DNA from: Chondrilla cf. caribensis
Lineage: Eukaryota > Porifera > Demospongiae > Chondrillida > Chondrillidae
Assembly: GCA_964020155.1 (NCBI GenBank)
Contig: OZ026564.1
Coordinates: forward strand, 2,044,955-2,108,954
Direction: 5' to 3'
DNA: 64,000 nucleotides
Shown: positions 116 through 53,097 of the stretch, one piece after another
Layout: the number at the start of each line of letters is the position of its first letter
Numbering within the stretch: the stretch's first letter is position 1
Position numbers and translations under genes: made by a program
Notes under the pieces: model-generated
Database searches by the model: none
Told to the model about the DNA's origin: nothing
What the model saw: the letters and a program-made list of their open reading frames with translations, nothing else

Positions 116-25833
<25,718 letters not shown>

Positions 25834-27548: not shown

Positions 27549-28223
27549 TTATAGTATTTTGTATACAGCTAAGCTGCTGAGTCCTCCACACACTTGATCA
27601 CGATGTTTTTGGCAACGCAAGTTACACTCACTACTGGCCACGGAAAAACGTTGCAAATTCCCATCCTTGACTTCTTTTACTTTCTCTCTAGACATGCAAT
27701 AGCAATTGCTCTCCTGCAGGCCAACATGAGAAAAACCGCTATTCAGACAAGAGTTTGCACATTCTTTAACGCTGACTGTACTCTTTCCACTGCTCCCAAG
27801 GTGAGGTATAATTTCTTGCTTGTAGCAACCGAGGTATGTGGCATCATAAGGTGTAACACGGTAGACACTATTAACTGACTGTCCTCCACAGATCTCATTT
27901 TTTTGAATCTGACAGGTATAGTTGCATTTTCCCTCAGGTAACTGCCCGTAAAGGCCGAACTCGTTGCCACAGTAGCACTGAAACCCTAATTGAAGACCAA
28001 AGTAGAAGAAATCTTTACAAAACTTCTTGCACTCATGAACGCTTCCGTGTTTGTCGGAGGAGTCGAAGCTTCCTATCAAATCCCTCATCCTAGCCGATGT
28101 GCTGTCTTGAAAGCAGCCAACATATCCATCTATGTTTGATGGAATTAAAGCAACTGTGTTATTATCTTCATCCCTTTCAAAAGATGGGCTTCTCCAGGTC
28201 TCAGCATGTCTTTGTTCAGAATC
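27549..28223 (-). other. Exon with two WSC domains
   Basis: The exon begins after a good acceptor (CATTGTACAG) in phase 0 and codes for 224 residues. The upstream continuation of the frame is AT-rich and closes at a stop without a convincing signal peptide, so this exon needs an upstream partner. WSC domains are cysteine-rich, putative carbohydrate-binding modules. Domain 1 runs from YVGCFQD to VNSVYRV and domain 2 from YLGCYKQ to the stop (VYKIL). Eight or more cysteines per domain are visible. Confidence 0.8.
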
Positions 28224-31200
28224 CTGTACAATGCGAATGTGATAACTAATACATTTCAACAACATTCGTACATACGCACATACACATATTATAAATAATA
28301 ATAAAGTAATAATTGAATAAAATTCAATCCGCAATCATTGTGCATACATGTTACATACCCATTAAGGTTATTACTATACAATGAATATTGTTAATCCACG
28401 GTTAATCTGCCAACAGCTTTATCCGCCATATTATTTTGAATTAAATTCACATTTATGGTTATGCTATACACATAATCCGTCCATCAAGCAAGCAATTCCA
28501 CTAGCACTTTTGTATGGGGTTTAGTGACAGATAATCTGCCCATTGTCAAGAAGCTGTGTTGGTGTAGAGCAAAAATGGCAGCAGAGCATTCAAAAGTTGA
28601 CTGAACAATGAAGCAGAAGAAGGATATTTGCAAAAACTGAGAGAGGAATCAGAAGACCTTGCACGAAATACTCACAGACCATTTCTCAAAGTGGACCCTA
28701 CAAATTGTGTGACAAATGGTAGGAGACATCCTGAAGAAGATCCATATAATATGTAATAGGTTAAAATATCCCCCGAAACCAATTGGAGAAATTAAAAAAC
28801 AAATATCAACTGTATTCCCATCAATATTCACACATAGTCACTAGTCTTGCTCTGCATTGAAGAGTAACATTTCAATTTAATGTGATCGATGCTGTAGCAC
28901 ATGTAATAGTTGCATCCCCTTTTTGGTCGGTACATATATGAAATCCCTATTTGATTACATATATGTACATGGGAAAATGTACTGAGGGGTGGGGAATCAG
29001 ATGATTAACCCTGGGTTGTGTCCTCAGATAATCAGCTGATATCCCCTAAGTACACTCCCATGTACATACTTACCAAAAGCGGGGTACAACTATTATGTAT
29101 CCTGTTCAATATCACCAAGTAGTAGTTGAGGTGAATTTGTTCATGACTTCAAACAAGACGATCTTCTCAAAGAGATGTAGATTGCTATCAACCCATTCAT
29201 TCGAGACAACACTAAAGAAGTACATGTATGCTTCTCTCAGAGGGCTCTGAGGCTGTTTATACATCCCAAACCAACAAGCCTCAGAATATTCATGGGCGAA
29301 TGAGGAAACTCGCCGAACCAACAAGCCTCAGGATACTTAGTAAACGAATAACAATTACTGCCGTGCAACGAAGTCTGTTAATTAATCAACACAACTAGCT
29401 CGGTTAAAATCTGGGCTCAGTGATGTACCTCGGTACATTGTAAATGCACTTCAGTCGGTCCCTTTGATCTTACATACGTACATAAGTGACGATATCACCC
29501 TTTGAGATATATTATGCATACATACCACATTTATACATGTGTTGCCTACTCAGGTTGGTTAGACAGATGCGTTTGTATCTCAAATATTATTAGTTTCACA
29601 TACAAAGCTTAAGTAAACTTTGGGTAAACATTGGTAGCAAGTCTGTCCCACAATTCATATAATATTATGTATAAAACTCTGTATAAGTCACCCGCAGTAT
29701 TATATATATAGATGTATGATTTTCTTTCGTTGTTGTTACTGAGAAACTCAATAATAGTTCCATAGGCAACTCCTCTCCCTCCATCTACATACAAACTCCT
29801 TCCTGCCCAGGGAGGCTTCAACTGAACATACGTACATCACACTAGTTAGTACCTAGTTAGTACCTAGTTAGTACCAGTCGTGTAACGTGTAATTCCCTAT
29901 TGCTATCACACACAAAGACTCACCTTGCCTAGATATGTAGAGTGCTCCGATATATGTTGGAATAGGTTTGGTGTCCTTTCGTATATTGCCTTTTTGAGCT
30001 TTTTGAACACAAATGTCGGTACAAGGAGATCAACTGGCCAATACCACGGTTTTTCAAGCAACATGTCAACAACTGCTTCCACAACAGATATATGATACAA
30101 CCATGCACATGCACCCCACACACTTCTGTTACGAGTGTCAGTTGCCTTTGTTGTACTCCATGTTCTTCGCGTGGAGGAGTAAAACGTAAGTAGACCCCAG
30201 TTTCGTATATCTGCCGCGAAATATTTCACTTTCTTCAAGACATTTTTAGCTGGAGTCACATCATCCTCTAGCACCAAGTTATACGTAGCATTGTACTTGA
30301 AAAGAGCTTGCAAAATTGTACTGTAGTCTAAAACTGAACAAAATTAGGTGTCATCAAATTAATTGAATATACATACATACATAATGTACACACAATCAGA
30401 CACATATGCGCATATTATACGTATATATGAGCATACGTACTTAGGTACGTACATTATTATGCATTTACCATACCTTAGGTATAGAGATTAAGAAACATTT
30501 TCAAGTTTCAATTTGAAACAAAATGGAGTGCATGCATACAGTACAGTACGTATATACGTACAGCACTGTATACATAAGTTAGTGGATGTACATATGTACG
30601 TAGTATGCACATACAGATATACGTACTAGAAATATTTGTTGTGTTGTGTCTGATTTTACTCATAAATGAAAGATAAACTATAGCTCATACCATGCATTGG
30701 AATGTATTTTAACACAGTTATTAGAGGTTCATTTCATGTTTGGTTTGTAGGTGGGAAGGTGCACACCACATGTCAAGCTACAGGAAATGAAATCAACTAT
30801 CATACCCATGTGAAATAGAAGTGCTTGGGGAACCAGTATAAGTAGCAGCATTGTGTCTGAAGGGCCTAATAATTATTACTGTCACAGGAAATAGGAAGCA
30901 CATTAAAACTGCAGTGGTAACTGACTCGTATCTCAAATACACAGCAATTACATACAGTACATGTAGTTACAGTGACTAATGGCGATTATACAATCAATTT
31001 TGTACAAGGGGCTGTAATACACAAACACAGTACCTTATCTAATAGGTTAGGGCAACTAGCCAAGATCCATGTACGTACTCTGTTTTCAGGTCAAGTAGTC
31101 ATCTGTTTACTCATAACAATTTCAGATACAGCAATAAATCATGACCAAGTATGCCATTACTTATGTTATTATTGGTACATGTTCAATAGTATATCATCAC

Positions 31201-33212
31201 CACAACATAAACAGACATGTATGTATGTTTATGTTGTGGTGATGATATACTATTGAACATTTACTATTAATAACATAAGTAATGGCATACTTGGTCATGA
31301 TTTAATGCAACATATATAAGCATAAATATATTATGTCTGTTTATGTTGTGGTGATGATATACTATTGAACATGTACCAATAATAACATAAGTAATGGCAT
31401 ACTTGATCATGATTTATTGCTGTATCTGAAATTGTTATATGAGTAAACAGATGACTACTTGACCTGAAAACAGAAGTACGTACATGGATCTTGTCTAGTT
31501 GCCCTAACCTATTAGATAAGGTACTGTGTTTGTGGGAAATCATACAATGACTTGCATATCGCCTATGTCCTCTACAGCTGTCATTAGTATCACCACATAG
31601 TGTGTAACCTGTAAAGTGCACTGGGAAAAAAGAAGCCTTGTATGTACCTAACAGACCTGTCCAATGAATTTACATGTATGGCTTCTCTACAATGTGAGCA
31701 GTTACATCTGTTCAATGTGCTGATTTTCTACAGTCTTTTCGGTTGTTAAGGAATTTCTCCTTATTATTGGATATAGTAGCTACTAACCTTCCTTGGATTC
31801 AGGTTAAAGATACCCTGACATATATATATATACATTCCACATTTTAGGATTGTATAGGATTCTTATGTGGGTATAGACGCACATAATATAATGTATGGCC
31901 ACCAACACTGAAAATGATAAAAAACATACATAGTACAGTACAGTTATGCTTCAGACCTTCACTGCAATAAGACATGTTGGACAAATTCTTTAGCTAGTCT
32001 ATGTCGTGAACATTCATCATTTAATGTACTTTCCACATACATACATACATACGTGGAGTAACAACTTGAACAAAGAATACAATAAGGGGGCTGACAGTAA
32101 ACAGTGTGTCAAGCAAGCTGTACTGATGTCAAAATAGCAGTAGTCTCAAGTGACCAAGTTCTATACCTATCATTTCTTTCGCAAAGGAGAGATTGTCAGT
32201 GGTTTATTCTCCATACAGAGGAAGGAAAGTGTGTGAGAATTTGTCTGGCTATACTAGACAAATTGATTTGGGAATAATTCATTGTCGCACTTTCAAGATG
32301 TCTTAATGCACCACAAAGATTGCATTGTTCCCAACAACCTACAAGTGGTATCGAATGCAATACACTTTTGTCACCCAACACACACACACGTGGAACCATA
32401 ATCAATCCAATAAGAAACTAATCTCATCTATAGCCTAACCAATTTGACCCTGTTAGCCATATTTAAAGGCACTTGTATTACCTCGTGTCCCCAGTTACTA
32501 CGTCTCACTAGTATATACTTCATGTACTAGTCACTGACAGTTAAAATTTGACAGTTATCATAGACTTGTAGTTTGAAGTGTAAATATAATATTATAAGCA
32601 TACATCTTATGTCAGCCATCGCCCAAAACCGAGCTGCATTGACCGTACGTCGGGGAACAGATTGCGATGCTGTTGCTCACCTTGCTTGGTTCGCCATATA
32701 GTCCGCTCCATGGAGTCGCCTCGTGTGTCCTTGATATTCTCTGCCTGCGCCTGTGGGTACGGATTTCTCTCCACGATTACTTCTATTCCATACCTCTCCT
32801 TGTAGTCGTAGAGGAAGCGTAAGATTTCCTCGTCACACGAGGTATCAAATGCAACGTGAACAAGAATCACCGTATCTACCGGTACTTCTTCGGAATATAA
32901 ATCTTCTAATAGACGATAAATTGTAGGAGGGTTCCTTTTGGCGACCGATATTCCTACTGCTAGCTTATAATTTATCGAGGTCTTGGTTGTGGTTGACTGT
33001 TCCAGAGTATCTATCAGTTTAAGACTCTGTAGAACACGCTCCGCTCCGGAGTCCTCAAATCGGGACAAGTACTTGATCTTCGGTGAGGACTCCTCTCTTG
33101 CCGTTTCATTGGACTTTACACCTGATGTTATTCTTAAAATGAGTAATGTCACGGTAAGCAAAAAATTTAGAAGAAGAAAGAGGAATAAGATTCGCTTCCC
33201 GATTCTCCACAT
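27549..33212 (-). CDS. MGAT4/GT54-type glycosyltransferase, probable fusion to two WSC domains
   Basis: The model joins exons 32681-33212, 29924-30327 and 27549-28223 (536 residues; phases 1 and 0). The start ATG at 33212 gives a short cytoplasmic end and one membrane helix (ILFLFLLLNFLLTVTLLIL), a Golgi type II topology. Exon 1 has KLAVGISVAKR and ends WRTKQ; exon 2 continues DYSTILQALF, then VLEDDV (acidic, residues 198-200, likely metal/UDP-sugar site) and NLFQHISEHSTYLGK. These match N-acetylglucosaminyltransferase IV (MGAT4, GT54), which adds beta-1,4-GlcNAc branches to N-glycans. The last exon holds two WSC domains (CF.....C..C and CGG patterns, starting GYVGCF and YLGCY). An alternative last exon (29609-29821) gives a 382-residue enzyme without WSC. 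The GT call is firm; the join to WSC is inferred from phase and the lack of a separate start. The substrate is not provable here. Confidence 0.65.
29609..29821 (-). other. Alternative terminal exon of the glycosyltransferase
   Basis: It follows a TTCAG acceptor, opens in phase 0 and reads LKPPWAGRSLYVDGG before a stop at 29609-29611. HSTYLGK joined to LKPPW resembles the MGAT4 continuation after the QH..HSS.AGK motif only weakly. The second half is AT-rich and may simply be read-through intron. Confidence 0.35.
31020..31534. repeat. 0.5 kb hairpin: two ~200-base inverted arms plus a partial third copy
   Basis: The left arm (31020-31217; starts CACAAACACAGTACCTTATC) is the inverse of 31333-31534 (ends GGTACTGTGTTTGTG) with few mismatches. 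Between them, 31217-31306 repeats the inner part of the right arm. The structure lies in intron 1 of the glycosyltransferase gene and has no recognisable coding content. Confidence 0.85.
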
Positions 33213-33407
33213 TGTAGCACCGGCAAACTTCACTTCTTTGATCGGTTAATTTTCCTCCGGATTTACTTCTTCTGTCCTATAAGGTTAGACCAGCAGCAAG
33301 TTGTCAACTACTCATAAATGGGTTAGCCCGGCATTAGCGGTCATGATAATCGAATATTACGCCCCTTCAGATATTATGTAAGGTGGATTATTGGAAGATA
33401 TACTAGA

Positions 33408-39053: not shown

Positions 39054-42000
39054 CTAAGCACGTGATATAAACACATAATTTGCTACATGTGTGGACAAAC
39101 CTTTCATACTGGTAGTATATGCATAACCAGATGCAGAGCCGAATCCATACATGACCACTCCAAACTGACATTGGCTGCCAGAGCACTCTATCTCATGGAA
39201 AGTAGCTCGCAGTTTTTGGATCCTCAAAACAACAAATTCTTTCCCATTTAGCGGGGGAGCCCACAGAATGTCATATTTAACAGATGATAGTGGCAAGTTG
39301 TCTAAGGTGAGTCTGCGCTCTAAAAATGCATTCTTGTCTGCAATGATGTTCACAAAGTGATGAATGAATCTATCCATCGAGAAACTGTTGAATACAACTT
39401 TGGTTGTGAACGATGTCGTATCCTTTAGAATAACAATAGCTGGGTCACCTCGTAAATCGCCTCCCCTACTTTTACTGAATTCAGCAACCATTACTGGTTT
39501 ACTGGCATAAATCCCACATACGTCGTTATGTGAAATGCTAAATTCCTTAACTTGTGTAGCACTAATTATCAATGTCTCCGCTGCCCTGTTTTTGCACAAA
39601 ATATTAACAGAAGTGGTATTATAAGCACCAATTATTTTAATATAAGCTCCATATCTTCTTCCGGCAAAAGCTGACACTATGTATTCTTTCCCAAGTGAAT
39701 GAATTGGTGGTAGTTGTTCAATCATATAATCACAAAAGTGTACTCCTTTAGGTACATTACCACAAGCATGGCCACTGTAAACTGCCAATGGAAAATTGGA
39801 GATAATTTCAGTCCCTGTTAAATCCTTGTGTGATGTCACAGATAAGGTCTCGTGAGTTTCCAGTGCAAATATACCAAGGGGTAGCTGGTATGAGTAATTG
39901 TGATTCTTGTAAATTTTAATTTGGGCCAATCCTTGTGGAGCTATGACACGAACCTGTGTGTTTGGAGTGGTTCCAACAATTGTGATGATTCCTTCTGGCT
40001 GCACTTTGTAATTGTATTGGTTGGTTGAAGCCACAGAGACTCCTAAGTAGTGGTAACTTTCAAAGGCATTAGAGTTTCTCGTGGGCATAATTTCAAATGC
40101 TCCAGCTGATCCAGAGGAGAAACTTCCTCCAATCAAAGTGACAGCTCTTAACGAAGACACTTGAACGTGGTAATCATCGTTTTTGATCAATTTTATGGTA
40201 GCTGGATTACCCTTATTCACAAAAGCTACTCTTTTGTCTAAGCCATCTGATGAGGTCACATAAATAATACCTTTATCTTCAGCTATTGCGAACAAGTAAG
40301 CGACTGATTGATCTTCTGTCCATTTCCGAGAGTAACCAACATAATAGTTTCTTGTACAAGTACCTGTGCAAATGAAAACGCACATGCAATACAATTAAAT
40401 TATAAAATTGATGCATACGTATGCAGCACACATGTACATATGTACATCAACATTATCATGTATGTACTGAATATAGCACTTAATATAGACTCACTTTTGT
40501 TACAGCTTGGTCCGGTATATTCAACAGTACAAAGACAATTCTGAGGATCAATGTTGACACCACCATTCAAGCACTGTTTATACAATTCCACTGATAATGA
40601 TTCGTATCCTAGAACATGGGGCGACCGAACAATGCACCTGTATTCACCGTGGTAATTTGTCTGCAATGTATTGAGGGACAGAGTAGCCGAACGCCTGTTA
40701 GAAGTAGTAGTCACATTTGCTATGCTGGGAAGAGAGCCATTGAATCCAACCATCTCCCATGAGACATACGCTTCAACACAAGCACAAGTAACTGAACACT
40801 GATACATCTTTACATTATCTGATGACGATAGCTGCTTGATAGTGCCTGCAAGTTCTACAGTAGCTGTGGTGCTCTTTTTAACCTCTACTGATAATGTAAC
40901 GTTGCGCGTCATGTTCATCACTGTAACATAGAAAGTCTCAGAAAAAGCACGCTTTCTTTCTAGATTGGCAAAAGATAACCTGGTGGAGAAAGAATACTGC
41001 CCTCCATTTGCCTCCCAATAGTAATCGTATTGAAATGGACTGGGGTTCCTGAAATCGAAGGATCCATATATCACGAAAGAAGTACCATCACTGGAGAAAG
41101 TGACGGTCTGTGTGCTGTCAGCGAGCAAAAGCATCTTGAAGTGTTGCATGGTGCCTTTGAATATGGGCAATGTTACCCTATCGTTCTCCTTCACAACAAT
41201 TTTCGCATCACAAGTTCTTCTATATAGAGGAATCGCTATTTGCGGAAGTGCATTAAAGTCACTCAAGCGATAAGTTTTGGTTGGATCGTTTGTCATAGCC
41301 TGTAGTTCCTTTTCACTGATCTTATTCCCAACGCCAACAACAAACAGTTCTATACCAGCCATACGTGCTGTCCATGCTGGAATGTGTACATCATCATATG
41401 ATCTTCCTTCTGTTATTACAACCATGACATGTGCAACTCCTGTTGAAATCGGTCTTGATCCAAATTCTTTTGAGAAACCGAGAATGCTTGACTGCTTAAT
41501 GGCTTTCCCAGTATATGAGAAACCTCCGAGATATTCGACCTTACCAATTGCATTTTGAATGTCTCTTGTATTATTGAATTGATTGAGACGGATTTGGCTG
41601 CGAATATCATCATCATAAACAATCACTCCAATTCGGACTTTATCATCTTGAAGATCATAATGACCTACCAGTTGCGACACAAAGTCAAGAAGTGCTTTGA
41701 AGTCATTCTGGCCTGTACTACCTGAGCCATCGAGCACAAAAACTACATCCATCTTGTTTGTACACTCCACCCCACAGGTATAGGTACCATAAGCTACTCG
41801 GGCTTGATTGTATCGTGTTTTAGCCAAATTACTTCCATCATAGTAATCTCTAAACATTTCCCACTGCGATTCTGCATACTTCGGAATATCGGCAAGACTT
41901 AGCCCTTGAGTGTTAAGGTCTTCAATTAAACTCAGGATAGTAAATAGTGCGGATACAATAGGTTTGTCTAGGTCTTGGTACTTGATACTACCAGGAGACA

Positions 42001-42373
42001 GAAAGTATACCTGAAACACACGATACACAGGTATAGTGTACAAACGAGAGCCATTTGTTTTGAAGTAAATCGAATTCTGGACTTTTGAGAATGTGTTCTT
42101 GTCCACCCTCCAGAGACCACCAATGTTCTCCTGTTGCAATGTCTCTCCATCCCTAGTCTCAAAGAAAGCCAGAAAACGTAGGAACCCATTGGTCGACCCA
42201 AATATCAGCCTGCTTGTATCATGAGTAACAGCTTCTTCAACCAGGGACACTACTGCTTCCACAGTCCCACAATAGTTGGTCCTTGGATTTACTGGTTCCC
42301 TCGTACTGTCGTTGCCACTACATCCGCAGATGGCATGAAGAACAAAGAGCAGAAATCCGATAGCTATCACCAT
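39054..42373 (-). CDS. Secreted VWA - Ig-like - EGF-like - IgGFc-binding-type protein
   Basis: Two exons, 40495-42373 and 39054-40363, join in phase 1 to give 1062 residues. ATG 42373 starts a signal peptide (IGFLLFVLHAICGC). Residues ~208-385 are a VWA domain: DVVFVLDGSGS supplies the DxSxS metal site and GFSYTGKA the threonine. The usual TDG is TEG here (residues 321-323), so metal binding may be altered. An Ig-like domain (~515-605, YQC...W...GEYRC) and an EGF-like motif (CLNGG...CLC...YTGPSC) follow. Exon 2 is an IgGFc-binding-type domain: LPLAVYSGHACGNVP, DYMIEQLPPIHSLGKEY and CQFGVVMYGFGSASGYAY. In vertebrate FCGBP this domain heads a mucin-like protein. The protein likely acts as an extracellular adhesion or matrix component. 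The last ~17 residues past the domain are uncertain, since a weak GTTTGT donor precedes them. Confidence 0.85.
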
Positions 42374-42429
42374 AGTCTACTGCGAAGATATCCTCAACTG
42401 ACTCGTGGTTGATTCAGGCAAATCCAAAC

Positions 42430-45600: not shown

Positions 45601-46040
45601 TAACGTATATATTGTTAAATACGTAGGCATTTGCAATGGACAATGTACTATTTCCAGATATTAATGTTAATTATTATTATAGATATCTTTGGTACATTTA
45701 AGCCAGTGAGCATGCCATACGTATGTACTGTAGCTACATAGATGTTCAAGAATGTACTGTTCTTATAAACGAAAATTACACATTATGTAGGCAAGTCGAT
45801 GTCATAATATTGTTTATTTCCACTTAATCTTCTTAGAAATTCACCTTAATATTGTAATACGTATGTAGTTTTTTTCAACTCAACACAGTAAATAATAGTT
45901 AGTAAATATCAACACATTAGATATCATAATACACAAAATTAAACTTGGTTTGTGTCAAAGTAATATGCACTATTTACCTAAATAAACTATGTTTGCCAAT
46001 GCAGTCCATGCTTAGTAACGGACAGTACTATTATTGGCCA
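42665..46040. other. 3.4 kb intergenic region
   Basis: No convincing gene. The sequence is AT-rich with many TACGTA/GTACAT palindromes. The only structured part is the minisatellite at 44482-44641. A minus-strand AATAAA at 45813-45818 could serve the pentapeptide gene, 220 bases past its stop. Confidence 0.6.
44482..44641. repeat. ~21-22-base minisatellite (GATTGATGGATTCCCCAGTA)
   Basis: About seven variant copies of GATTGATGGATTCCCCAGTA are arranged head to tail with 1-3-base length differences. Confidence 0.85.
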
Positions 46041-49000
46041 TTACACATAGTATCCACGGTAGCAGGTCTGCATACGATTCCTCTCAACGATGTTCTGTAT
46101 CGGCAAGAAGTCAGCAGGTTTGGCTTCGAAGTCAACCTCGCTAACAAACTCAGGGTGGTCCACATTTGTGGCAGTGTGGAGGAAAGCCGACTTGTAGATA
46201 ACAGACTCGGCAACTTCCCCTTCCATGACCACAGCATGGGTGACATTCAAGGACCTTATGTTGCTGCTGTTGATGGTGGTGTAGAGCATTGAAGTGTTCC
46301 CGATTACGATACTGTCGAAAATCGAGCCATTCATCCTGAAGAGGGTAAGAATGGTACTGTTGAAGACCAGGATGGAGTTGATGTTATAGTCCACAACCCT
46401 TGCAGTGGCATTGTTGAAAGTTACGTTGGTGAGGATGCAACATACAAAGGCATTAGTCCCGTTCAGAGTTGCATTCAGAATCGCAACATCTTCCAATCGA
46501 CTCTGGTGGAAGCGAGTGGTGTTGAACAGAGTATTATTGAAGGTTGTATTGAGGATATCTGCATTGGCCACAATTGAGTAGTTGAAGGTGACATTGTGCA
46601 GAATAGAGAAATTGAATGTAGCCCAGTTGATCAGGGTGTTATTGAGGGTTACATTGGTGAGATTAGAAGCATGAACAGTCAGTTGCAAGAGAGTGGAGTT
46701 GAGAATGGTTGTGTTCGAAAGAGAAGAATTTCTGAATGTCACATTGTAGAGAGTGACATTCGACAGAGTGGTGTTGATGAAGCTGAAGGGATAGATGTAC
46801 AAATTCATCTCATCAATTGCAGTCTGGTTGATGAAGTTGATGAATGTGGCATTGAATATGGTCGAGTTGACTAGGGAGCTGTTAACAAAGGTAACGTTGA
46901 GAGCAGTAACATTGACCATCAAGGTAGCATTCATTGAAACATTGTTGAAAGTGACGTTGTTTAAGGTCAGATTTGACACCAGGACAAATGGAAGAAGACC
47001 TTGCGGAACAAGACCAGTACCATTGGCAAAGGTGGTGTTCACAAATGTGACATTGACCCATTCGTTGTTTATAACAGTAAAATTCACAAGGGAAGAGTTA
47101 ACAATGGTAGTATTTACAAGAGAAACGTTGGAAAGAGTCATGTTGAGGAAGGTGACGTTAACAAGGGAAGCATTCAGGAAGACAAAGGGGGATCCAATGG
47201 TATTGTTCAACAGCTCATAAGACAGAATGACACAGCAATCGCAGAAGTTAGCAGTGACATTTGGTCCATAGAGGGTCACATTGATGAACACGGAGTCAAT
47301 CATTGTGATGTTGACGAATGTTGCATTGACACCAGTAACGTTCACAATCGAGATGTTGTTGAAGGTGACATTATTGTAGGTGACATTCAGCAGCGAGCAG
47401 TTAACCAGGACGTTTGCACTGGGGTGGGTGAGGTTGCCAAAAGTTGTATTGGCCACAGTCATGTTAACCAAGGTGCTGTTGACAAATGTGGTGTTAATGA
47501 ATGTGGATTCCAAAATGGTAGTGTTTAGTACGCTAGCATTTAGTACGGTGGTGTTCACGAAAGTGACGTTGAGAAGCGTAGCATTGAGGAAAGTGGGAAA
47601 GACTACAGGTACGAGCTTGTCTATTGTGTTGATCTCTTCAATGAGACCCTCTGTAATGTTCTGAACTGCAGCCAAGGACACATTCCAGAATGTTGAATTC
47701 AGCATGGTGATGTTAACAAAAGTAACATTTACTCCGGTTATGTTCCAGAAAGATACATTGTTAAAAGTGACATTATTGAAGGTAACATTCCTCATTGTTG
47801 TGTTTACAATGATGTTGTAATCTCTGTATCTGAATTCAATTGGGATCTCCTGTGAGATATTCAAAAAGGTGGCGTTCCTCATTGTTGTGTTTACAGTGAG
47901 GTTGTAATCTCTGTATCTAAATTCAATTGGGGTCTCCTGTAAGAAATTCGAAAAGGTGGTGTTAACGAAAACAACATTCACCCAAGTGTTACTGATGAAC
48001 GATGAATTTGAATATGACGAGTTAAAGATGGTGATGTTTATGAAAGAAGCGTTAAATAGGGTAACATTAAGGAAAGAAACATTAACAAAAGAGGAGTTTA
48101 CGAAGATAGAAGGAAAGAAGGTAGTATTTCCAGAGGTGACATTATTGAGGGTAACATTCACTAATGTACTGTTGACGACCGTCATGTTGAGGAAGGTGGA
48201 ATTGTACATGGTTGTGTTGACCAGGGATGCGTTGAACAAGGTGACGTTCAGGAAGGTTACGTTCACGAAAGAGGAATTTACAAATTCGCTCCGCAGGGTA
48301 ATGCTGTAGTTGAAGCATGTGTAACAATCTTTGCCGCTCTTCTCCATGAGGTCATAAGGGTGGTCACATGGAACTACAACCTTTTCTGGGTGAGATGTGT
48401 TACCGAAGGTAGTGTTAACGATTGAAACATTGAGCATCGTAACGTTGACAAAAGTAGAGTTGATGAAGGTTGTGTTAACAATTCTGTCGTATATGTCAGA
48501 TCGTGGGATTAAAATGTAGCAAACAGTATACTCAGCCACTTTGCCCTTTTTGATGAAGTACCTTTCTTCAATTCGGGAAATATTGTGTTTCTTGGAATAA
48601 CAAGGAACCTCCAGGTATTGTTCGGGTTGCACGCCAAAAGTGACATTGTTGAACGTAGTATTGAACCATGTGCTGTTGGCAATACTGGAGTTCACCATAC
48701 TTGTATTGTAGATAGTCAAGTTTAAGGTCGTGACATTGACGAATGTGACATTCACAAATGTCGAGTTGGTGATGAGGTTCAAGTTTAATTGGGTGTTGTT
48801 GTAAGGATTAGAAATGTTACCGAAGGTAACATTGACAAAGGTGACATTGATCCAAGTATTGTTCAGAATGGTCGAGTTGAAGAGAGTGGTGTTGTAAATT
48901 GTAGTCTCCACAAAGGATGCATTGCCAAAGGTGACGTTGTTGAAAGTGACATTGTTCATTGTAACATTGACAATAGCAACGTAGTAGGGCTTTGAGAACA

Positions 49001-50734
49001 CGTAACAAGCATGCTTTGATTTCTTTGACGTCCGGGAATACACTTCCAGGAGGTCATACGTGGATTTACAAGAAACCTTAGTCTTCTCAAATTCTTTGTA
49101 TTGGCCAAGTCTTGAATCCTGGAAGGTGAGGTTGGCCCAGGTAGCATTGGTGCCATTCAAGCGATCAAAAGTGCTGTTCACGATGGAGCTGTTTACAAGA
49201 CCGCCTTCGACAAGAACCACCTCGTGGAATGTAGCATTTACAAATGTACAGTTGACAAAGGTAACGTTGTATAACGTGCTGTTAAGAATCTTTGTGGAGA
49301 TTATGGTGGCATTGTGCATGACAACATTCCTCATGTGAGAGTCTACCAACTCAAAGGTAATGGGCAAGGTGTTTTCGGAATCGTAGGTGATGGAAACATT
49401 CTCCAAACGGGAACGGATCAGGCGGACACGTTGGGTAAAGAAATTGACAATGGTGGTGTTTATGGCAAAAATACTGCATTCCGCATTACTTAAGAATTTG
49501 TTCCTAATGGTGTCATCAATGCCAGGCAAATCTTGGGAGAGCGGATCAAAATCTCTTGGCTTGACAACTGCAGTGAAAGATAAGATAAGTTAATATAATT
49601 TCTACATCCAAGATTGTAATAATTAAATATTTTACTGTACAGGTTTAAATATGTCAGTAATTCAGTAATGTAAAAATTATCTGTATACTACCAAACTTGC
49701 TGAGTAAGTTCCCAAAGGGGAGTCATCAAATCTGTATTTTTATCGGAGGTACCCATAATGAGTACCATTTGACTTTGTGTACACACAGGAGGTAGGGTCT
49801 GAGTGAAGTGTTCATATTAACAGAGGTATGCACTAACCACGGTACTTACTAAGCAAGTTGTACCTTATACTGTGGGTATAGGTATATGTACATACAATCC
49901 CCGTATATTTGAATCATTTTGCAAGATAGGTCTAATGCAACCATAGTAATTGCATAGGAAAATAGTGTTCAGTATTGAGAGACAGATGTGAACATTGCAT
50001 GTATGCATGTACGTATAAGGTACACTGCTATCGATATCAGTCTATAGAACTGGATTGTTGTATACTTACACTACCCAATTCTTTTGTCATAATGCATGTA
50101 GTCCCCAACATATATAGAGCACATAATTGATGGTTACGTGAATTTTGTTTTTGTGAATTTCATGAAAATTTCATGAATCACAATTTCAAATCAACAGCCA
50201 GATGACAAACTGTATACAACTGAAAACTGTACACACACTGGGGAACCAGGTACAGTAACTCACAGATCTGCAAGGTGGTGTTCTCAGTAACACAGGTGTA
50301 CACTCCGCTGTTCTCTGGCATGGCTTTCTCAACGACCAAGGAACCATTGCGAATAACAACATTTTGTGGAAGAACATTCTCAAACTTCCACTCGCCAGCA
50401 GCATCAGAAGTGTAATTTTCTCCTTCCATCAGGACTACTACTTTCATCTGCAAGTAGTAGAGATGCATTCAATTGTGTTACCAATGACTCAAGATTAACT
50501 CAACACTAGATAGAGTTGATTGGACATGCAACTTACCTTGTCATTAATGGGGAAACATTCTGACGTGGGGATTTGTGGGGGTACAGGATCCTCAGGTTTC
50601 AAAGGGATTTCAGGGAGGGGAGTAGAGGCAATTGGCCTGGCAGGAATCTCCACACCCTCAAATTTGAATGGCTTTGAAAATCCATTACTAATGGCAATTG
50701 CCACCACCAAGGCACACAACACAATCTTAGCCAT
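46041..50734 (-). CDS. Secreted Ig-domain protein with hyper-N-glycosylated pentapeptide-repeat array
   Basis: Exons 50537-50734 (phase 0), 50264-50447 (phase 1) and 46041-49567 give 1302 residues. ATG 50734 starts a signal peptide (MAKIVLCALVVAIAISNG). A proline-rich stretch follows (residues ~30-58), then an Ig-like domain (C60, W near 90, SGVYTC). The large last exon is almost wholly pentads of the form N-x-S/T-[FLMIV]-x, for example NVTFV NVTFL NVTLF. Read as F/L at the central position, this is the pentapeptide-repeat pattern that folds as a square right-handed beta-helix. Asn and Ser/Thr recur so that almost each pentad makes an N-glycosylation sequon; I count about 137 in this exon and about 3 more in the Ig exon. 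Three cysteine-bearing loops interrupt the array. No membrane or GPI segment is seen. A known extracellular parallel is the luminal N-glycosylated pentapeptide domain of SV2 transporters. Function unknown. Confidence 0.85.
47792..47965 (-). repeat. 87-base in-frame tandem duplication inside the pentapeptide array
   Basis: Two adjacent copies (about 47792-47878 and 47879-47965) encode QE(T/I)PIEFRYRDYN(L/I) followed by VNTTMRN. There are a handful of base differences, so the event is recent relative to the rest of the array. Confidence 0.8.
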
Positions 50735-50817: not shown

Positions 50818-50931
50818 CTTAGCTTGAGAACTTGACTCCTTCGAATATGCTGTATGGGGAGCTTGGACAGGGCCTCAGGAACACAACTCAATTCTGCTTA
50901 AGCACAGCAAGCTCTGCTGCTTTTGAGCTGC

Positions 50932-50938
50932 TTTTATA
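50932..50938 (-). promoter_or_regulatory. TATA box of the pentapeptide gene
   Basis: TATAAAA on the minus strand lies ~200 bases upstream of the ATG. Transcription would start near 50900-50910. Confidence 0.55.
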
Positions 50939-52636
50939 GAAGAGCAGCACATGTGAACAGCATGATTTGCAACTTGACCTCGAGTTAATGATATTCATAG
51001 TAATACAATATCAGCCAGCTCTGCACTTTCATGCAGTCTCATCAGGTTTCAAGCACATGAACTCTACACACATAACCACACACCTCTGCAACATAAGACC
51101 TAACAGGCCCTTTGTAACATGTTAACATAATACCTTTGTCAAGGGACAATTCAACACAATGCTCGAAACAACCGCACAGACTCAATGTCACCATTTCTAG
51201 ACCTCAATAGACAGCTGTGCTCAGCATACACAACTTAACATGGATTACACCCAGGAGGGGCGGCACTGTGAGTGTCAGATTGAGTAGAAGACATACAGAC
51301 AGACATACAGACATATCTATACATGCCGGATAGGTAGGATGTAACATTCAATGCATTTGCACATAATATGGTTATGCATGTATAGGAGCATTGTTTTTTG
51401 ATTGGCTGTGGCCCAAACATAGAGGCATATATATCACTGATCCAAACTAGAATTATTTGCCAATCATAATTCAACCCCACTGTCTGCAGTGCTACTCAAT
51501 GAGCTCACTGGACCAGAAAAACTTGAAGTAGTCTGAATTTCACAAATGTACTTTTTGTCTTTTTCCGGGATACGCCATCTTTTCACTTGGTATTAAAGAC
51601 TCTAACGAGTTAGTCCATGGAGGATTGATCAATTCTGAAATCTTTCATTTGAATCGCAAGTCAAAGACTACCAGCTCTTTCCCGTGGCTAATGAAACCCC
51701 AGGCAGATGAGTAAGTAACCACAGAGTACTGGGAATGCAGAGAGCACACCTAACACCAAAGATGACCATAATCTTGAGGATCTAAAAGGTTGATTACTCC
51801 CCTTGTTAGAGGTGATCAGCTGGGTCAGGAAATAGCTTGTTAAAATGCCACATAGACCATCTGATGTTGACTATGTGTTATGGGCCATGTGTACATAAGA
51901 AACAATAACTTTATTAACATAAAACAGCTCATATATATTCAGTAACACCCTACTCACAGATGACTCAAAAGCAACTTTCTCCCCACTGCCTGACATGTTC
52001 ATCCAACATGTACATGGATGTACAGGGACCTTGGTGGTGACCAATGAACATATACAAGTGCATGTAACAACTCGATCCGATATCGATATCTGCAGTTATA
52101 CGGTGAAACCTAACGGAACAAAGCATTCCTTTATAGCTGACTCAGTTACTACATACATGTGTTGTGCCTCACACAAAGTCTGTTGGTGGGTGTCTAGCTG
52201 TCTGCCTCGTTCATACAATATCCTCGTCAGGTGTACACAGACTGAGTGTGCACATAACACTGGTCAGAACGTTCGATGGAAATTGGTTCTATGGGTTGTA
52301 ATATGAGAATTTGATGTGAAAATTGGCCCAGTACTCTTGCTGGAGACGTGGTTTGTTTATACACACATATAAGTATACATAATTACATCTCATACAATGA
52401 TATTGTTATAAATCATCAAATTACTGTATGTACATGCAGCATCTAGTTTAAACAGATGCAATTCATGGTCGTTGTTCTGGTAGCTGTGAAGTGTGGTCTA
52501 ATACCCTCTGTATCAACATCACAGGATATATTATATATGTCATATACAGTACTTTTGTACTAACAGTATATAAATTTGAACTCTGCCACATGTATCTCGA
52601 TACACAATAGAAGGAACTCCTTTTCTAAACCTTTTC
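50939..52636. other. Intergenic, no gene seen
   Basis: Only short chance frames occur. A four-fold ACATACAGACAG-type repeat lies at 51291-51320. Confidence 0.6.
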
Positions 52637-53097
52637 TATGGACCAGTACTGCTATGGGTCTGTACTGCTATGGGCCAGTACTGCTATGGGCATGTACCGT
52701 TATGGGCCAGTACTGCTATGGGCATGTACTGCTATGGGCCTGTACTGCTATGGGCCAGTACTGCTATGGGCATGTACCATTATGGACCAGTACTGCTATG
52801 GGCATGTACCATTATGGGCCAGTACTGCTATGGGCCTGTACTGCTATGGGCCTGTACTGCTATGGGCCTGTACTGCTATGGGCCAGTACTGCTATGGGCC
52901 TGTACTGCTATGGGCCTGTACTGCTATGGGCCTGTACTGCTATGGGTCTGTACTGCTATGGGTCTGTACTGCTGTGGGCCTGTACTGCTATGGGTCTGTA
53001 CTACTATGGGTCTGTACTGCTATGGGCCTGTACTGCTATGGGCCTGTACTGCTGTGGGCCTGCACTGCTGTGGGCCTGTACTGCTATGGGCTTGTAC
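52637..53097. repeat. 16-base minisatellite (TACTGCTATGGGCCTG), about 28 copies
   Basis: The unit TACTGCTATGGGCCTG repeats head to tail with variants at the 3' end (CCAG, TCTG, CATG) and occasional GCTGTGG. Because 16 is not a multiple of three, all three forward frames stay open and encode the same 16-residue repeat (LLWACTAMGLYCYGPV). These overlapping open frames are a by-product, not genes. Confidence 0.95.

What the first reader, a model, noticed from the sequence alone, without database searches (positions are those of the whole stretch)
46041..50734. A pentapeptide-repeat protein in which nearly every pentad is an N-glycosylation sequon
The last exon translates into roughly 200 pentads of the form N-x-S/T-[FLMIV]-x, with about 137 sequons by hand count. 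If it folds as a pentapeptide beta-helix, the Asn side chains would line the outside at a regular step and display a dense, ordered lattice of N-glycans. With its signal peptide, Pro-rich hinge and Ig-like domain this would be a secreted glycan-presenting rod. I know of no described extracellular protein with this density; the SV2 luminal domain is a short parallel. This is the best candidate for an undescribed system here.
Basis: partly seen in the sequence, partly recalled or inferred. Interest (0 to 1): 0.93.

Follow-up and report, generated by a model that had tools for sequence, protein, structure and literature searches.

The report
Glycan-studded rod protein, sponge-like animal
The gene appears to encode a secreted rod-shaped protein with a sugar-attachment signal on most five-residue steps of its outer surface, and related genes seem to build the same rod with histidine, arginine or tyrosine there instead, which suggests one animal matrix scaffold made in several surface chemistries.

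Summary
A predicted three-exon gene (50734-46041, minus) encodes 1302 aa: signal-peptide-like start, Pro-rich stretch, Ig-like domain, and a pentapeptide-repeat array in one exon. The last-exon frame has 137 N-x-S/T sequons (1000 shuffles: mean 38, max 56); 109 of 167 register pentads are sequons. A 125-residue stretch models as a four-sided beta-helix (pLDDT 89), matching solved pentapeptide-repeat proteins and the SV2 luminal domain. In SV2C a glycosylated Asn sits in the same pentad slot. Asn and Ser/Thr are lost together within a pentad but not between neighbours, Thr is favoured over Ser at +2, and synonymous codons are randomised, so the sequon itself appears selected. Beyond the finding: seven related genes in the genome (one partly masked) share the array fold family and, in the five loci checked, the same intron position, but their outward slots are rich in His/Met, Arg with Asp/Glu, or Tyr/Phe. 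Best reading: an extracellular Ig-capped rod family of varied surface chemistry, the window gene being the N-glycan member. Glycan occupancy, expression and function are untested. Known fold, new variant; no description found in the open papers searched.

The parts
50537..50734 (-). Exon 1: signal-peptide-like start (MAKIVLCALVVAIAISNG...), Pro-rich stretch, probable first Cys of the Ig-like domain
   Evidence: ATG at 50734, donor AAG|GTAAGT, phase 0; the most hydrophobic 19-residue segment of the protein is residues 1-19; highest after residue 40 is 1.59. Signal peptide and Cys assignment inferred
50264..50447 (-). Exon 2: Ig-like domain
   Evidence: acceptor TTGCAG, donor TCT|GTGAGT, phase 1; PF00047 E 0.0013, below cut-off
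46041..49567 (-). Exon 3: pentapeptide-repeat array and C-terminus, stop at 46041
   Evidence: Pentapeptide_4 122.6 bits, LD_SV2 83.6 bits
46239..49460 (-). Span from first to last of the 137 sequons of the last exon
47934..48308 (-). [quoted passage not shown]
   Evidence: (pLDDT 89.4, pTM 0.80)
47788..47963 (-). Recent internal duplication, 2 copies of 87 bp
   Evidence: TRF, 91% match
50931..50938 (-). TATA-box-like TATAAAAG upstream of the start codon
   Evidence: read from the sequence; function not tested
45813..45818 (-). AATAAA, candidate polyadenylation signal about 220 bases past the stop
   Evidence: function not tested

Best explanation
A secreted rod protein. SHOWN from sequence: the open array, the sequon pattern and its within-pentad coupling, the related genes. 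MODELLED (125 residues): the array coils into a right-handed four-sided beta-helix, four pentads per coil. By the pentapeptide-repeat rule (recalled) slots 1 and 3 (V/S/T/A and F/L/I) fill the core and slots 0, 2 and 4 face out. INFERRED: during entry into the ER the oligosaccharyltransferase adds N-glycans to many of the 137 Asn before the chain folds (Thr at +2, seen at 103 of 137, is the favoured form); the folded rod (about 14 nm of coil if all runs stack) then carries glycans on its faces. Outside the cell the Ig-like end tethers the rod in the matrix or on cells, and the rod acts as a hydrated polyvalent glycan surface for adhesion, recognition or barrier. Related genes use the same rod with His/Met, Arg with Asp/Glu, or Tyr/Phe in the outward slots, so the family looks like one scaffold offered in several surface chemistries.
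For: Sequon count against shuffles. Coupling of Asn with Ser/Thr in fixed register, run ends (sequons by construction) left out: 91 pentads [[79,3],[3,6]], Fisher 9.6e-6; the neighbour control is not significant (Asn against Ser/Thr of the next pentad p 0.16, previous p 0.55). T:S 103:34 at +2 against 54:65 elsewhere, p 1.6e-6. Adjacent sequon Asn codons identical in 38 of 87 pairs, distant in 4160 of 8313. Fold. Slots: Asn at slot 0 in 116 of 167 pentads against 10-16 of 50-66 in six paralogue frames; slot 2 T/S 70% against H 32-34%, R/K/E 41%, or T/Y/R. Same intron codon and phase in the window gene and 5 paralogue loci, splice sites by consensus. dN/dS 0.33-0.47 in 6 non-independent paralogue pairs. 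Glycosylated SV2C N559-C560-S561-F562 in the same slot.
Against: No transcript, peptide or glycan datum. The whole-ORF single-sequence model was poor (pLDDT 38.3), so continuity of the rod across the Cys loops is not shown. Only one gene found in this genome has the dense sequon form, and no relative of it was found elsewhere. Glycans on successive coils may not all fit, and closely spaced N-X-S sites are often skipped. Kinship of the window gene to the paralogues by sequence alone is weak (hhalign probability 66%, E 5.8e-5); its Ig exon did not find theirs, and two paralogue queries did not find it. The LD_SV2 profile also rings in 4 of 14 control genomes, bacteria and an archaeon (over cut-off in 1), so it marks the fold more than SV2 descent. 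The only young duplication in the window gene gives dN 0.11 and dS 0.13 over 29 codons: no sign of purifying selection, too few to tell.
Confidence: 0.6

Rival explanations
1. The sequons are a by-product. Slot 0 Asn is a structural favourite of this family, and this gene merely drifted to Thr/Ser on the surface as others drifted to His, Arg or Tyr; most sites stay bare, and the surface works as a plain Asn/Thr ladder or packs rod to rod.
For: Slot 0 Asn is already 26-31% in His and Arg types; the family shows strong residue biases; full occupancy is sterically awkward; Thr over Ser may reflect strand propensity.
Against: Asn and Ser/Thr of one pentad are lost together (6 'neither' where independence expects about 1), neighbours are not coupled; Asn raised to 69%. 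A signal peptide would expose the chain to the glycosylation machinery.
Confidence: 0.22
2. Amino-acid storage proteins: secreted reserves, each gene banking one residue class, as insect hexamerins do (recalled: arylphorins rich in Phe/Tyr, methionine-rich forms).
For: Genes rich in N/T, H/M, R with D/E, F/Y on one constrained fold.
Against: Does not predict Asn coupled to Ser/Thr at +2; an Ig-like domain and a stable beta-helix are odd for a reserve (inference).
Confidence: 0.08
3. Chance, assembly or repeat-expansion artefact: a microsatellite-like frame without a real gene.
For: Short period; simple repeats do give such frames in bacteria and elsewhere in this genome.
Against: Synonymous codons are randomised while residues are kept; TRF (score 100 or more) finds only one 87-bp duplication in the exon; 1182 codons open; consensus splice sites at a family-wide position.
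Confidence: 0.03

Closest known systems
SV2A/B/C luminal domain LD4 (Pfam PF23894)
   Different: SV2 is a 12-TM protein with a luminal domain of about five coils (passages of PMC8145042) and few glycans (recalled); this protein has no transporter-type segment, an Ig-like domain, about 29 coils' worth of pentads in runs and 137 sequons.
Bacterial pentapeptide-repeat proteins (Qnr, MfpA, AlbG, C. botulinum 6FLS)
   Different: Short, cytoplasmic, not N-glycosylated (recalled); DNA mimicry in the MfpA/Qnr branch (passages of PMC8145042).
EtpA, two-partner-secreted adhesin of enterotoxigenic E. coli (PMC11463764, passages)
   Same: Works like it: a secreted beta-helical rod (about 25 nm), densely N-glycosylated, about 61 glycans per molecule measured; 96 canonical sequons among 166 Asn analysed.
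   Different: Three-sided helix, bacterial secretion, mono- and dihexoses added by EtpC; 1 measured glycan per 24 residues, against 1 potential and unmeasured site per 8.6 here.
Sponge glyconectins / aggregation factors (PMC7828597, passages)
   Same: Possible functional parallel: polyvalent weak glycan-glycan contacts (over 100 repeats) drive adhesion.
   Different: Their polyvalency lies in large acidic glycans, about 20 copies on a multimeric core; no Calx-beta domain was found in this protein's last exon.

Membership tests
[quoted passage not shown]
   167 pentads in register; one run of 22 pentads
Pentapeptide-repeat superfamily | Profile match above curated cut-off | tested here: met
   PF13599 122.6 bits, cut-off 38
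Pentapeptide-repeat superfamily | Right-handed quadrilateral beta-helix | tested here: met
Pentapeptide-repeat superfamily | Consensus [S,T,A,V][D,N][L,F][S,T,R][G] | tested here: inconclusive
   Core slots fit; the slot before F/L is T/S instead of D/N, and Asn sits two after it
SV2 proteins | LD_SV2 domain | tested here: met
   83.6 bits, cut-off 29, 4 stretches; the profile also matches in bacterial and archaeal control genomes
SV2 proteins | 12-transmembrane transporter | tested here: not met
   No transporter family in the last exon; no 19-residue segment after residue 40 has a Kyte-Doolittle mean above 1.6
Ig-pentapeptide rod family of this genome | Separate Ig-like exon, then one large array exon beginning [V/F/I]VxP, joined by a phase-1 intron | tested here: met
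   6 of 6 loci examined, by consensus splice sites
Ig-pentapeptide rod family of this genome | Sequence similarity of the array exon | tested here: inconclusive
   hhalign E 5.8e-5, probability 66%; BLASTP E 5e-8 but in low-complexity stretches; not found by the His-type or Tyr-type queries
Sponge aggregation factor / glyconectin | Calx-beta-type core protein (recalled) | tested here: not met
   Pfam finds only pentapeptide and LD_SV2 families in the last exon and weak Ig in the first 146 residues
EtpA / two-partner-secreted adhesins | Three-sided beta-helix with TPS domain | tested here: inconclusive
   Pentapeptide four-sided fold modelled and no such family listed by Pfam
N-glycoprotein | Glycans on the sequons | not testable with these tools
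   Needs mass spectrometry

The most novel reading that the evidence does not exclude
The animal owns a surface-coded construction kit: one secreted Ig-capped beta-helix scaffold whose genes were each driven to display one chemistry at fixed 5-residue steps - N-glycans (window gene), His/Met ladders for metals, Arg with acidic residues for polyanions or mineral, Tyr/Phe for cross-linking - and mixes them to build or functionalise its matrix. In the glycan member the chitobiose cores would stack along each face at the beta-helix rise (about 4.8 A), close to the chain spacing of chitin (both recalled), a protein-templated one-dimensional sugar lattice.
Probability: 0.3. Interest if true: 0.9.

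Novelty: new variant of a known kind. Interest (0 to 1): 0.77.

Why it matters
If the sites are used, this is the densest ordered array of N-glycan sites on a defined solenoid that I know of, a natural test of how many glycans the ER machinery can place 5 residues apart, and a candidate adhesive or barrier glycoprotein. The family matters more: the same rod with four different outward chemistries lets one ask directly whether surface residues of a repeat protein are selected as a material property, and it offers a scaffold for designed polyvalent display.

Tried and rejected
Homologues of the array in 5.8 billion proteins: none by the full ORF (only the 8000 candidates sharing most words were scored, and the words are low-complexity) or by its C-terminal 98 residues. 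A profile of four paralogues found one protein among 888 candidates, P0001, 410 aa, 83% identical to the Arg type.

First coupling test: an early register gave p 2e-28, but its neighbour controls were also significant (2.8e-8 and 6.7e-11) because pentads were misregistered; I dropped it. Flanked sets gave [[79,4],[4,10]] and [[66,2],[2,7]], each with a few misregistered exceptions that inflate 'neither'; I rely on the 91 inner pentads.

In 30 of 124 the matching frame was the longest open frame there, and none of these 30 held more than 13 sequons; the most in any frame was 39. The window itself has no exact match to that pattern, since its runs mix I, M, V and AGY serine, so this control is rough.

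Whole-ORF single-sequence fold: poor. BTB/KCTD-like pentapeptide genes on C13 were set aside: they look cytosolic. Of 56 own-genome Pentapeptide_4 matches I looked at 21 loci from three searches; most outside the family are frames of simple repeats, as are the other 7 matches.

Printed descriptions: searches of the open-licence library listed none of such a protein; subscription papers were not searched. The paper on closely spaced acceptor sites was not held; I used passages of a review, PMC7226087. Papers seen as passages only: PMC8145042, PMC5923319, PMC7226087, PMC7828597, PMC11463764, PMC10280926. All others: search listing with start of abstract only.

Full report
OBSERVATION. The window's minus strand carries a predicted gene of three exons, 50734-50537, 50447-50264 and 49567-46041, with GT-AG introns and compatible phases; translation gives 1302 aa. 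A TATA-like box lies about 200 bases upstream and AATAAA about 220 bases past the stop. The last-exon frame has 137 sequons against 38.2 +/- 4.9 (max 56) in 1000 shuffles; 87 of the 136 gaps between neighbouring sequons are exactly five. The spliced protein has 140. Of the 137, 103 are N-x-T and 34 N-x-S. With a register that ignores slots 0 and 2, 167 pentads are found, 109 of them sequons. In the 13 runs of three or more sequons, 105 of 115 pentads are sequons, a figure inflated because the runs are defined by sequons.

IS THE SEQUON ITSELF SELECTED? Three results say so. First, in pentads whose register is fixed by flanking sequons, Asn and Ser/Thr go together: of 91 inner pentads 79 have both, 3 Asn only, 3 Ser/Thr only, 6 neither (Fisher 9.6e-6). 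Asn is not significantly coupled to Ser/Thr of the next (p 0.16; inner only 0.09) or previous pentad (p 0.55). The numbers of exceptions are small. An earlier, misregistered test with significant neighbour controls was dropped. Second, Thr is preferred over Ser at +2 (103:34) and not elsewhere (54:65), p 1.6e-6. Thr suits the co-translational enzyme better (PMC7226087, passages), though strand propensity could also favour it. Third, neighbouring pentads do not share codons more than distant ones (Asn 38 of 87 against 4160 of 8313; Thr 14 of 50 against 1618 of 4684), so the pattern is not recent copying; the tandem-repeat finder reports only one 87-bp duplication in the exon. That duplication has dN 0.11 and dS 0.13 over 29 codons, too little to judge selection.

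FAMILY. The window lies in a 137-Mb assembly. LD_SV2 gave 6 matches there: 3 on C2, 2 on C18 and the window gene. Protein queries extend this: C18 carries a Tyr/Phe-type gene (611 kb) and three Arg-type genes (621, 628, 635 kb); C2 carries His/Met-type frames at 3199, 3254 (partly masked) and 3536 kb, pieces at 3373 kb and a copy with stops at 3462 kb. Composition: Asn 15% and Thr 13% in the window gene; His 15-17% and Met 9-13%; Arg 10-11% with Asp/Glu; Phe 14.5% and Tyr 13%. The core slots stay hydrophobic while slots 0, 2 and 4 change; the paralogue frames hold 3-7 sequons in all. An Ig-like exon lies upstream of each of the 7 paralogues and of the 3373-kb pieces, below Pfam cut-off in the 3 tested. 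In 6 of 6 loci examined the intron falls in the same codon, phase 1, just before [V/F/I]VxP, with donor GTGAGT. The window gene's sequence similarity to the rest is weak outside this (E 5.8e-5, probability 66%; its Ig exon finds none of theirs), so common descent rests mainly on gene structure plus fold. Close paralogues show dN/dS 0.33-0.47 in 6 pairs, which are not independent and one of which has dS 0.006. One public protein, P0001, is 83% identical to the Arg type, so that type exists in another record, whether another species or another haplotype.

MECHANISM. Inferred chain: signal peptide, translocation, glycosylation of many Asn on the unfolded chain, coiling into rods broken by Cys loops, secretion. 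If runs stack, 115 pentads make about 29 coils, 14 nm at an assumed 4.8 A rise; 64 of 137 sequons have another exactly 20 residues on, that is on the same face one coil later. A volume estimate does not forbid full occupancy (dry shell about 13 A for Man9 at 100%), but crowding at the base and skipping of close N-X-S sites make partial occupancy more likely. The closest working analogue is EtpA, a 25-nm beta-helix with about 61 N-glycans (PMC11463764, passages).

VERDICT. Real, not chance, correctly described, and probably part of something larger than reported. The fold is known; the sequon-per-pentad surface and the family with exchangeable surface chemistry were not found in the open papers searched. 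Function remains inference.

Noticed in passing
L087, L089, L104: Three loci from the genome scan (L087 titled Methanotrichaceae) encode short secreted-looking proteins with 10-11 sequons, several N-x-T-[LI] pentads in a row, a possible archaeal parallel of a sequon array.
   Followed up: no
window 6945-7415, 13646-13981, 14264-14467, 14588-15067 (+): Calx-beta-like frames (the first below cut-off); the same contig and C14, C16, C18 hold many of the 150 Calx-beta matches scored.
   Followed up: partly
window 39054-42376 (-): Two adjacent frames with a von Willebrand A domain and an IgGFc-binding domain, possibly one secreted gene.
   Followed up: no
window 27549-28334 (-): Frame with two WSC matches.
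   Followed up: no
window 32607-33245 (-): Frame with a hydrophobic start and a weak MGAT4 match (E 0.014, 14.8 bits, cut-off 51.5), a possible N-glycan branching enzyme near the sequon gene.
   Followed up: no
window 52636-53097: 16-bp minisatellite, about 29 copies, open in three frames.
   Followed up: no
L159, L161 (G000:C2 3199 and 3536 kb): His/Met-rich pentapeptide frames (His 15-17%) with His in a third of slot 2 positions; possible metal-binding ladders.
   Followed up: partly
L144, L145, L147: Cluster of BTB/KCTD-like frames (recognised by eye) with a short C-terminal pentapeptide array on C13.
   Followed up: no
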